DNA from: Blattabacterium cuenoti
GTDB lineage: Bacteria > Bacteroidota > Bacteroidia > Flavobacteriales > Blattabacteriaceae
DNA length: 64,000 nt
Reading direction: 5' to 3'
Assembly: GCF_014252335.1 (NCBI RefSeq)
Contig: NZ_CP059218.1
Coordinates: 112,165 to 176,164, forward strand
Shown piece after piece: positions 7,918-20,661 of this stretch. The notes under the pieces are model-generated. The model had not been told where the DNA came from and did no database searches. It saw nothing but the letters and a program-made list of their open reading frames with translations. Every line of letters begins with the position of its first letter. Within the stretch, counting starts at the first letter, position 1. The position numbers were made by a program, and so were the translations under genes.

Positions 7918-8499
7918 ATGAAATGGATAAATTCATTAGTTAGTTGTTTCATGATATTGTTTAGTATTATCGATATTTTAGGTAATGCTCCTATTATTAT
8001 GGGATTTAAATCTAAAGGAAATATTATAGAAACTAAAAAAGTAATTATAACATCCTTGATAATATTTTTATCTTTTCTTTTTTTAGGAGAACCTTTATTA
8101 ATAATTATTGGTATTGATGTTCAATCATTTTCTGTAGCTGGATCTTTTGTATTATTTCTAATTGGATTAGAAATGATATTAGGAATAGATATCCATAAAG
8201 TACAAAAAAATGCACAAACATCTATAGTTCCTATAGCATTTCCTCTTATTGCTGGTCCTGGATCATTAACTACATTGATATCATTGAAAACTACGTATAA
8301 TGTTTCGATTATTATTATGTCTTTGATTTTAAATATGATAGTAGTTTATTTTGTTTTAGAAAAATGTGATATGATTGCGAAAAAATTAGGTGCTAATGGA
8401 TTAGATATTGTAAAAAAAATATTTGGAATTATTTTATTAGCTTTTGCAGTGAAAATTTTTGGAGCTAATATCAGTGATTTATTTCACAAAAAATTTTAA
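7918..8499 (+). CDS. MarC family integral membrane protein
   Basis: A 193-residue membrane protein with six likely helices. The family features are a first helix containing FSIIDILGNAPIIMGF (usually D-P-x-G-N-x-P), the segment LFLIGLEMILGI, and the second-half motif PIAFPLIAGPGSLTTLISL. MarC proteins have no firmly established transport substrate, and the old link to multiple antibiotic resistance was withdrawn. Its 3' end overlaps the 3' end of rnpA on the other strand by 21 bp. Confidence 0.88.
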   Translation: MKWINSLVSCFMILFSIIDILGNAPIIMGFKSKGNIIETKKVIITSLIIFLSFLFLGEPLLIIIGIDVQSFSVAGSFVLFLIGLEMILGIDIHKVQKNAQTSIVPIAFPLIAGPGSLTTLISLKTTYNVSIIIMSLILNMIVVYFVLEKCDMIAKKLGANGLDIVKKIFGIILLAFAVKIFGANISDLFHKKF

Positions 8500-8843
8500 A
8501 TTTATAAAGATTTTCTTCAATGAAAAATTTATTACATGAAATGTTGGTAAAATACTACCTTGATAAATAAAAACTATGTAATAAATTTTGTTATTATGTA
8601 TTTTATTTTCTAAAATATATTTATTTAATACATAAGCTGATCTAAATAATCTTTTTATTTTATTTCGATGAACTGCCTTTTTAAAAACTTTTTTTTTATT
8701 AATATTCCAACAATTTTAGTTTTTAAGTAATTATTTGATTTTTTTTGATCTATTGAAATATATTGCAGTTTTATAGGAAAATTATATAATAATTTTCCAT
8801 ATTTTATAATATTTATAACATTAATTTTTAATGAACTATTCAT
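8479..8843 (-). CDS. rnpA: Ribonuclease P protein component, frameshifted at a run of nine A
   Basis: RnpA binds RNase P RNA and helps cut tRNA 5' leaders. The 5' part (8843 to about 8698) reads [20 protein letters not shown] and on to [10 protein letters not shown] nine-A run on the coding strand (8697-8689) then puts the frame into an early stop at 8657-8655. From 8688 another frame runs open for 69 codons to a TAA at 8481-8479 and begins [19 protein letters not shown], the RnpA signature. With one extra A the gene reads [20 protein letters not shown] without a break, 121 residues in all. The missing base lies exactly in the homopolymer, so slippage rescue, sequencing error or true loss are all possible. 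The start overlaps the end of fbp by 8 bp. Confidence 0.88.
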
Positions 8844-12019: not shown

Positions 12020-12441
12020 ATGAAAATAAATAAAAAATACGATGAAATTTTCTTACAAATTGCAATAAATTTGTCTAAATTATCTATTTGTAAAAAAAAA
12101 AAGTAGGAGCTATTATTGTTAATAAAAATCAAATTATATCAAATGGTTATAATAATACTCCAAAAGAATTTGATACATTATGTGAGGATAAACATGGAAA
12201 CACAAAATGGTATGTATTACATGCAGAAGCTAATGCAATTTTAAAATTATCTTCTTCATCATTATCATGTACAAATTCTTCTTTATATATTACACACTTT
12301 CCATGTAAAGAATGTAGTAAATTAATTTATCAATCTAAAATTCAAAGAATAGTCTATTTATATGACAATGAAAATGATAATATAGAAGAACAATTAATTT
12401 TTTTTAAAAAAGCAAAAATTTTGATTAACAAATTTATTTAA
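12020..12441 (+). CDS. dCMP deaminase family protein, frameshifted at a run of eleven A
   Basis: This family deaminates dCMP to dUMP, the substrate of ThyA. From the ATG at 12020 the frame reads MKINKKYDEIFLQIAINLSK, then LSICKKKK, and stops at TAG just after an eleven-A run (12092-12102). Beginning at 12103 a second frame gives VGAIIVNKNQIISNGYNNTP and continues to the TAA at 12439-12441. It contains the zinc site HAEANAIL and PCKECSKL and the family motif CEDKHGNTKWYVLHAE. Adding one A makes CKKKKVGAIIV, matching the spacing CKRKQVGA of relatives, and gives about 140 residues. Both pieces look well conserved, so the gene is probably recent in its damage or rescued by polymerase slippage. 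It ends 23 bp before a tRNA-Leu. Confidence 0.88.
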
Positions 12442-12464: not shown

Positions 12465-12550
12465 ACCCAGATGGCGGAATAGGTATACGCGCTGAACTCA
12501 AAATTCAGTGATTTAATGATATCATGCGGGTTCAAATCCCGCTCTGGGTA
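12465..12550 (+). tRNA. tRNA-Leu (anticodon CAA)
   Basis: An 86-nt class II tRNA can be folded by eye. The acceptor stem pairs ACCCAGA (12465-12471) with TCTGGGT (12543-12549), followed by discriminator A at 12550. The D stem is GCG/CGC. The anticodon stem CTGAA/TTCAG encloses the loop CTCAAAA, giving anticodon CAA, which reads UUG. A long variable arm follows, then the T arm GCGGG-TTCAAAT-CCCGC. The CCA end is not encoded (CTA follows), so it must be added by the CCA-adding enzyme at 54483-55931. Confidence 0.96.
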
Positions 12551-19860: not shown

Positions 19861-20661
19861 TTATACTGCAACATCTCCTTTAATATGAGGATAAGGATTA
19901 TAATTTTTTAATTCAAAATCTTCAAATTTAAAATCTAAAATATTTGTTTTATCAGGATTTATAATCATAGTTGGCAATATTTTTGGGCTTCTTTTAAGCT
20001 GAATTTTAGTTTGTTCTATATGATTATTATAAATATGAGCATTTCCAATGGTATGAATTAATACTTTTGCTTTTAAATGTACAATTTGAGATATCATTAT
20101 AAGTAATAAAGCATAAGAAGCAATATTAAAAGGCAATCCAATAAATAAATCTGCACTTCTTTGATATAATTGCAAAGATAATTCTTGTTTATTTTTATTC
20201 ACGTAAAATTGAAACATAATATGACATGGAGGTAATTTCATCTGTTTAATCATTCCTACATTCCAAGAAGAAACTATTATACGTCTTGATTCAGGATTGA
20301 ATTTTATCATATTTATAACATTGTCTATTTGATCAATAAATTTTCCATCATATGTTGGCCATTTTCTCCATTGAAATCCATATATTGGGCCAAGTTCTCC
20401 ATTTTCATTCGCCCATTTATTCCAAATAAATACTTTATTTTTATTTAAATAATGTACATTAGTTTTTCCGTTTAAAAACCATAACAATTCATAAATAATT
20501 GCTTTTATATTTACTTTTTTTGTAGTTATTAGTGGAAATCCTTTATTTAAATCAAATTTTAATTGAGCTCCAAATAAACTGATTGTTCCTATTCCTGTAC
20601 GATCTACTTGTTTTGTACCTTTTGTTAATACTTTTCTTAATAAATTTAGATACTGTTTCAT
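19861..20661 (-). CDS. thyA: Thymidylate synthase (ThyA type)
   Basis: ThyA methylates dUMP to dTMP with methylenetetrahydrofolate. The catalytic cysteine is C146 in [13 protein letters not shown], matching E. coli numbering. The dUMP-binding stretch [18 protein letters not shown] and the opening [19 protein letters not shown] are clear. It is 266 residues, close to the E. coli size. Its dUMP would come in part from the frameshifted dCMP deaminase at 12020-12441. It is divergent from prs. Confidence 0.98.

What the first reader, a model, noticed from the sequence alone, without database searches (positions are those of the whole stretch)
12020..12441. dCMP deaminase gene is one A short in an eleven-A run
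Eleven A at 12092-12102 take the frame into TAG. Twelve would give CKKKKVGAIIV, the spacing seen in relatives, and then a complete zinc site (HAEANAIL, PCKECS). Downstream of the run the sequence shows no decay. The product would supply dUMP to ThyA, encoded in this window, so a working enzyme would make sense.
Basis: partly seen in the sequence, partly recalled or inferred. Interest (0 to 1): 0.72.

Follow-up and report, generated by a model that had tools for sequence, protein, structure and literature searches.

The report
Genus-wide poly(A) frameshift in deaminase gene
A DNA-building-block enzyme gene in a cockroach endosymbiont looks broken by one missing A in a run of eleven, but most species of the genus have the same eleven and keep the rest of the gene under selection, so the cell probably repairs the reading frame while copying the gene into RNA, as already shown for ant and aphid symbionts.

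Summary
In detail: A11 at 12092-12102 leads ORF 12020 into TAG (12104), and the rest of a dCMP-deaminase-type protein is open in the -1 frame to 12441. It is not a private mutation and very unlikely a read error. The window lies in a Blattabacterium genome (genus inferred from matching published chromosome lengths). Of 49 genomes of the genus, 30 carry pure A11 here, 9 pure A12, 7 an interrupted 12-nt tract (in frame), 2 A10; one is odd. All 80 free-living relatives have the 12-nt spacing. The downstream part is intact in all 49. Off-frame lineages evolve no faster than in-frame ones (p=0.92). Other runs of 11 or more A/T in conserved genes of the same regions are in frame 109:6, against 9:30 here. 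Every interrupted tract is in frame. Best reading: frame restored by RNA-polymerase slippage on poly(A), as published for Buchnera and Blochmannia; -1 ribosomal frameshifting at A_AAA_AAG is the main rival. rnpA, 3.4 kb away, behaves likewise in 37 of 49 genomes. RNA evidence is lacking. The 'dUMP for ThyA' argument is weakened: relatives carry dUTPase on a plasmid that this assembly seems to lack. New member of a known kind.

The parts
12020..12106 (+). 5' part of the deaminase gene (28 codons, N-terminal helix to CKKKK) in the start frame, ending in TAG at 12104-12106
   Evidence: upstream part open through the Cys codon in 48 of 49 genomes
12092..12102 (+). pure A11 tract; 12 nt would be in frame
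12097..12103 (+). A_AAA_AAG heptamer in the start frame, directly followed by TAG: potential -1 ribosomal slippery site (rival mechanism)
   Evidence: sequence; frame-0 stop at this position in 28 of 30 A11 genomes
12094..12441 (+). 3' part (catalytic core) in the -1 frame; no ATG/GTG/TTG between the tract and the HAE motif in this genome
12220..12228 (+). HAE zinc-binding/catalytic motif
12301..12315 (+). PCKEC zinc ligands
8655..8843 (-). rnpA (RNase P protein) 5' part, start frame: second gene of the window off frame at poly(A)
8689..8697 (-). A9 tract of rnpA on the coding strand, one A short of frame here
8479..8697 (-). rnpA 3' part in the shifted frame ([19 protein letters not shown]...)
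   Evidence: PF00825 matched by the intact relative
19861..20661 (-). thyA

Best explanation
A functional dCMP-deaminase-type gene of a Blattabacterium endosymbiont whose reading frame is interrupted in DNA by an off-frame pure poly(A) tract (A11 instead of A12). RNA polymerase slips on the A11 tract and makes a mixed pool of mRNAs; those with one extra A (or two too few) are translated into the full-length enzyme. Because slippage rescues enough product, A11 and A12 are close to equal in fitness, so the tract drifts between 11 and 12 and settles mostly on the mutationally favoured 11. A10 is rare and apparently disfavoured. Once a substitution interrupts the tract, slippage stops, and only in-frame 12-nt tracts survive. 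Shown here: the off-frame run, its genus-wide recurrence, purifying selection on the downstream part, and in-frame status of every interrupted tract. Inferred: the slippage itself and the activity of the enzyme.
For: Downstream domain intact, no stops, in 49 of 49 genomes. Tract states 30 A11, 9 A12, 7 interrupted 12-nt, 2 A10, 1 odd. A11 inferred ancestral (root posterior 0.89; 10 length changes by parsimony). Pooled omega 0.30 for ten A11-A11 pairs versus 0.26 for five other pairs; relative rates not raised (MWU p=0.92); focal lineage 1.86, typical. Under simulated neutrality about 19 of 20 A11 branches would have gained a stop; none did. 0 of 32 off-frame tracts interrupted versus 7 of 16 in-frame ones, Fisher p=1.6e-4, not corrected for phylogeny. 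A11:A12 = 30:9, like intergenic runs (5:2), while A10 is far rarer than expected. No in-frame start codon before HAE in 24 of 30 A11 genomes, including this one. Other conserved-gene runs of 11 or more are in frame 109:6. rnpA shows both +1 and -1 offsets at its run, and its 3 interrupted tracts are in frame. Precedent: transcriptional slippage at poly(A) in Buchnera and Blochmannia (PMC3017870, PMC5009743, citing Tamas 2008 and Wernegreen 2010).
Against: No RNA, protein or raw-read data were available. Within the focal sister pair (L113/L114) the gene's own dN/dS is about 1.1 (19 non-synonymous, 4 synonymous changes), although it is 0.38 with neighbouring genes' dS. -1 ribosomal frameshifting at A_AAA_AAG_UAG would explain the deaminase as well, and the sole tRNA-Lys found is UUU, as in E. 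coli. The off-frame/interruption contrast counts related genomes as independent; only 4 interruption events by parsimony.
Confidence: 0.75

Rival explanations
1. Translational repair: -1 ribosomal frameshifting on A_AAA_AAG just before UAG, as at E. coli dnaX, makes the full-length enzyme from an unaltered A11 mRNA.
For: The heptamer lies in frame directly before the stop in 28 of 30 A11 genomes. One tRNA-Lys (UUU) found, the condition described for slippery AAG in E. coli (PMC5009743).
Against: Cannot rescue the two A10 deaminase genomes nor the +1-offset rnpA genes. Only 7 nt are needed, yet the first codon of the tract is never AAG in 30 A11 genomes (chance 0.11, weak). No stable downstream RNA structure (z -0.97).
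Confidence: 0.13
2. Pseudogene: the gene is dead or dying in A11 lineages and the function is replaced by the plasmid dUTPase or the host.
For: Own dN/dS of the focal pair about 1.1 with few synonymous changes. Relatives have an alternative dUMP route, dut.
Against: No stops downstream in 49 genomes. No rate acceleration in A11 lineages. Neutral simulation expects about 19 of 20 branches broken. A11 shared across deep branches.
Confidence: 0.05
3. Sequencing or assembly artefact: the true run is A12 everywhere and long runs are under-called.
For: Pure A12 is near the limit of short-read accuracy; artefacts would also spare interrupted tracts. Among pure runs, A11 and A12 do not cluster significantly on the tree (7 changes versus 8.3 shuffled, P=0.16).
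Against: The 30 A11 genomes hold 79 in-frame runs of 11 or more A/T in conserved genes of the same regions, 29 of them 12 or longer. Off-frame ratio at this locus versus other genes: Fisher p=3e-18. Frame state over all 48 classified genomes is clustered on the tree (P=0.0006).
Confidence: 0.04
4. The catalytic domain is translated on its own from an internal start.
For: The 3' ORF is intact on its own.
Against: A TAA precedes the tract in that frame in this genome, and 24 of 30 A11 genomes, including this one, have no ATG/GTG/TTG before HAE. The N-terminal part is kept open through the Cys codon in 48 of 49 genomes.
Confidence: 0.02

Closest known systems
Poly(A)-tract frameshifts rescued by transcriptional slippage in Buchnera and Blochmannia (Tamas et al. 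2008 PNAS; Wernegreen et al. 2010 MBE 'Slip into something more functional'; B. vafer dnaX, dnaG, pth and others, PMC3017870)
   Same: Obligate insect endosymbiont, AT-rich, single indel in an A-run of about 11, both halves conserved, frameshift shared between species, interrupted tract not shifted (noted for B. pennsylvanicus dnaX in PMC3017870).
   Different: Different phylum (Bacteroidota), different genes (dCMP deaminase, rnpA), recurrence counted over 49 genomes; no RNA data here.
Thermus thermophilus dnaX (slippage on nine A/T giving a heterogeneous mRNA pool; PMC5009743)
   Same: RNA-polymerase slippage on an A/T run as part of normal expression.
   Different: There the DNA frame gives the long product and slippage the short one; here DNA gives the short one.
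E. coli dnaX -1 ribosomal frameshifting (A_AAA_AAG)
   Same: Same heptamer in frame, stop codon beside it, tRNA-Lys UUU.
   Different: No stimulatory structure found here; cannot explain the A10 or rnpA states.
Bge rnpA, described as that genome's only pseudogene and put down to a possible point mutation (PMC2768785)
   Same: Same gene, same place; off frame in this window too.
   Different: The 49-genome comparison points to poly(A) length changes, off frame in 37 genomes in either direction, rather than a point mutation.
Deoxycytidylate deaminase (PDB 4p9c; PF00383)
   Same: Read-through protein matches residues 7-116 at 93 bits, with HAE and PCxxC.
   Different: Gene split at the tract; NCBIfam ComEB equivalog cut-off not reached.

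Membership tests
dCMP deaminase (PF00383 zinc-dependent deaminases) | Pfam profile above curated cut-off | tested here: met
   PF00383 81.8 bits, cut-off 25
dCMP deaminase (PF00383 zinc-dependent deaminases) | HAE and PCxxC zinc site | tested here: met
   Present in the window. The stricter pattern HAE.NA plus PC..C holds in 44 of 48 genomes; the other four keep HAE and PC..C
dCMP deaminase (PF00383 zinc-dependent deaminases) | Best solved relatives are dCMP deaminases | tested here: met
   4p9c 1e-25, 2hvv 5e-18, 2w4l 2e-15; TadA only 7e-5
ComEB (TIGR02571) equivalog | Score above cut-off 219 bits | tested here: not met
   79.3 bits
dCMP deaminase (PF00383 zinc-dependent deaminases) | Deamination of dCMP to dUMP | not testable with these tools
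   needs an assay
Slippage-rescued endosymbiont poly(A) frameshift | Single indel in a long A-run, gene otherwise intact | tested here: met
Slippage-rescued endosymbiont poly(A) frameshift | Frameshift shared between species with purifying selection downstream | tested here: met
Slippage-rescued endosymbiont poly(A) frameshift | mRNA pool with heterogeneous A-run lengths | not testable with these tools
   no RNA reads
Programmed -1 ribosomal frameshifting | In-frame slippery heptamer | tested here: met
   A_AAA_AAG 12097-12103, UAG next
Programmed -1 ribosomal frameshifting | Downstream stimulatory structure | tested here: not met
   single-sequence fold z -0.97

The most novel reading that the evidence does not exclude
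A11 in the deaminase gene (with the off-frame rnpA tract nearby) is a selected, programmed recoding site kept through the radiation of the genus that sets enzyme dose by slippage efficiency, so off-frame poly(A) would be a regulatory device of Blattabacterium rather than tolerated damage.
Probability: 0.1. Interest if true: 0.7.

Novelty: new member of a known kind. Interest (0 to 1): 0.5.

Why it matters
In this genus an apparently broken gene, often the basis for calling a pseudogene, is the normal state in most species and still under selection, so metabolic maps drawn from annotation can be wrong. It extends slippage rescue from gammaproteobacterial symbionts to the Bacteroidota with 49 genomes of comparative power, and offers an evolutionary test (off-frame tracts never interrupted, interrupted tracts in frame) that needs no RNA. 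It also suggests re-reading the published 'pseudogene' rnpA of the German-cockroach symbiont as a poly(A) frameshift.

Tried and rejected
A first scan for off-frame runs used shadow ORFs as queries and wrongly called the deaminase A11 tracts spanned; redone with non-overlapping genes. Sole-source-of-dUMP argument: dut, dCTP deaminase and thymidine kinase are absent from the assembly, but so is nrdB while nrdA is present, and nrdB and dut are plasmid genes in Periplaneta strains (PMC6039017), so absence of dut is not evidence. Regulatory RNA: Rfam finds only the tRNA at 12465-12550. Positive selection for A11: not needed, since 30:9 matches intergenic run lengths, though those are few. Tamas 2008, Wernegreen 2010 and Patino-Navarrete 2013 are not held in the library; the first two are known here through citing papers. 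No structure prediction was run.

Full report
Observation. The coordinates are right. ATG 12020 reads 28 codons to CKKKK and a TAG at 12104-12106; the run is exactly eleven A at 12092-12102. The -1 frame is open from the run to 12441 and carries HAE (12220-12228) and PCKEC (12301-12315). The joined protein matches PF00383 (81.8 bits) and, among solved structures, dCMP deaminases best (4p9c, 1e-25). It does not reach the ComEB equivalog cut-off, so the safe name is dCMP-deaminase-type; activity is untested.

Where it is. The window lies at 112165-176164 of a 567,897-bp single-contig genome. Seven genomes of the same genus in the search set have exactly the published chromosome sizes of Blattabacterium strains: 622,952 BNCIN, 629,165 BGIGA, 636,850 Bge, 634,449 BBor, 605,745 BCpu, 587,248 BMda and 632,490 BPAA. 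The genus is therefore Blattabacterium, an inference from sizes and gene content.

Genus-wide comparison. All 49 genomes of the genus encode the downstream domain without a stop. Reading the tract in each 20-kb region gives 30 with pure A11, 9 with pure A12, 7 with an interrupted 12-nt tract in frame (for example AAAAAGAAAAAA, AAAAATAAAAAG, AAAAAAAAACAA), 2 with A10, and one odd case (L115, Blatta orientalis by size: A10 with TAG in the start frame). The upstream part is open through the Cys codon in all 48 classified genomes. Eighty free-living or other Bacteroidota relatives all have four residues, typically KRKQ or ERKK, between the same Cys and Val. The 12-nt spacing is thus ancestral to the genus, and CKKKK looks like the AT-driven derivative.

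Selection. On a tree of seven neighbouring genes, deaminase branch lengths relative to neighbours are 1.78 in A11 lineages, 2.32 in A12 and 1.57 in interrupted lineages (Mann-Whitney p=0.92, A11 versus in-frame); the focal lineage is 1.86. Pooled omega is 0.30 for ten A11-A11 pairs and 0.26 for five other pairs. A neutral simulation on ten A11 pairs expects about 19 of 20 branches to hold a stop; none does. The focal pair alone is noisy: 19 non-synonymous and 4 synonymous changes give 1.1 on its own dS and 0.38 with neighbours' dS. This is the weakest point in the selection case.

Not a read error. In the same 49 regions, runs of 11 or more A/T elsewhere in conserved genes are in frame 109 times and at an edge or off frame 6 times, against 9 and 30 pure runs here (Fisher p=3e-18). 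The 30 A11 genomes themselves hold 79 in-frame runs of 11 or more, 29 of them 12 or longer. Frame state is clustered on the tree (8 changes versus 13.6 shuffled, P=0.0006), although A11 versus A12 among pure runs alone is not (P=0.16). Raw reads were not available.

Mechanism. None of 32 off-frame tracts is interrupted, while 7 of 16 in-frame ones are (Fisher p=1.6e-4; about four interruption events by parsimony, so weaker than the count suggests). That is what rescue by slippage on a pure run predicts: lose the run, lose the rescue, so only in-frame tracts survive. A purely mutational account (interrupted tracts simply do not change length) predicts the same contrast, so it bears on mechanism only together with the evidence for selection. 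The A11:A12 ratio (30:9) resembles intergenic runs (5:2) and A10 is much rarer than intergenic lengths predict, consistent with 11 and 12 being nearly equivalent and 10 being costly. An internal start is unlikely: in this genome and 23 of the other 29 A11 genomes no ATG, GTG or TTG lies between the tract and HAE. The main rival is -1 ribosomal frameshifting on A_AAA_AAG with UAG next (28 of 30 A11 genomes); one tRNA-Lys (UUU) was found (two of 32 tRNA hits were not typed). It does not explain A10 tracts, and no downstream structure is evident (z -0.97).

A second gene. rnpA, 3.4 kb away on the minus strand, is one A short in this window (A9 at 8689-8697; halves 8655-8843 and 8479-8697); its intact relative matches PF00825. 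It is off frame in 37 of 49 genomes, in both directions (17 and 20), in frame in 10, with 2 unresolved by the script; the three interrupted tracts are all in frame. In the Bge genome rnpA was reported as the only pseudogene and put down to a possible point mutation (PMC2768785); the comparison favours poly(A) length changes. Slippage in RNA is the one mechanism considered here that explains both directions at once.

Metabolic argument. ThyA is at 19861-20661. dUTPase, dCTP deaminase and thymidine kinase are not found in the assembly. However, 12 other genomes have a dUTPase above the cut-off, nine on a small extra contig and three in the chromosome; Periplaneta strains carry nrdB and dut on a plasmid (PMC6039017); and this assembly has nrdA but no nrdB. 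The plasmid is probably just missing, so the deaminase cannot be called the only dUMP source.

Prior knowledge. Off-frame poly(A) tracts kept by selection and rescued by transcriptional slippage are established in Buchnera and Blochmannia (Tamas 2008; Wernegreen 2010; both cited in PMC3017870 and PMC4389277). In the searchable library no paper was found that reports this for Blattabacterium, but key papers are not held. Verdict: real, well supported comparatively, mechanism inferred; a new member of a known kind.

Noticed in passing
window 8479-8843 (-): rnpA is off frame at an A9 run in this window and at the same place in 37 of 49 genomes of the genus, in both directions; interrupted tracts are all in frame.
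   Followed up: yes
L137 4757-7466 (G016, = BPAA by size); also G015 and G002: dut, an nrdB-like gene and other small ORFs sit in the chromosome between fbp and the deaminase, a few kb upstream of it, which looks like integration of the usual plasmid. The dut match in G016 contains a TAA.
   Followed up: partly
G000 whole assembly: nrdA present but nrdB and dut absent: the plasmid seems to be missing from this assembly.
   Followed up: yes
L117 8791, L128 8658, L157 8674: RNase H gene off frame at A10, A13 and A12 runs in three genomes.
   Followed up: partly
L115 (G045, = Blatta orientalis strain by size): Deaminase tract is A10 preceded by an extra A that makes TAG in the start frame; downstream still intact.
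   Followed up: no
L140, L141, L158, L161: The Asn of HAExNA is replaced by Asp, Lys, Asp and Ser in the deaminase of these four genomes; HAE and PCxxC kept.
   Followed up: no
PMC6039017, Periplaneta strains: metG, gltX, atpG and dnaN are listed as pseudogenes; such essential genes could also be poly(A) frameshifts and deserve the same check.
   Followed up: no
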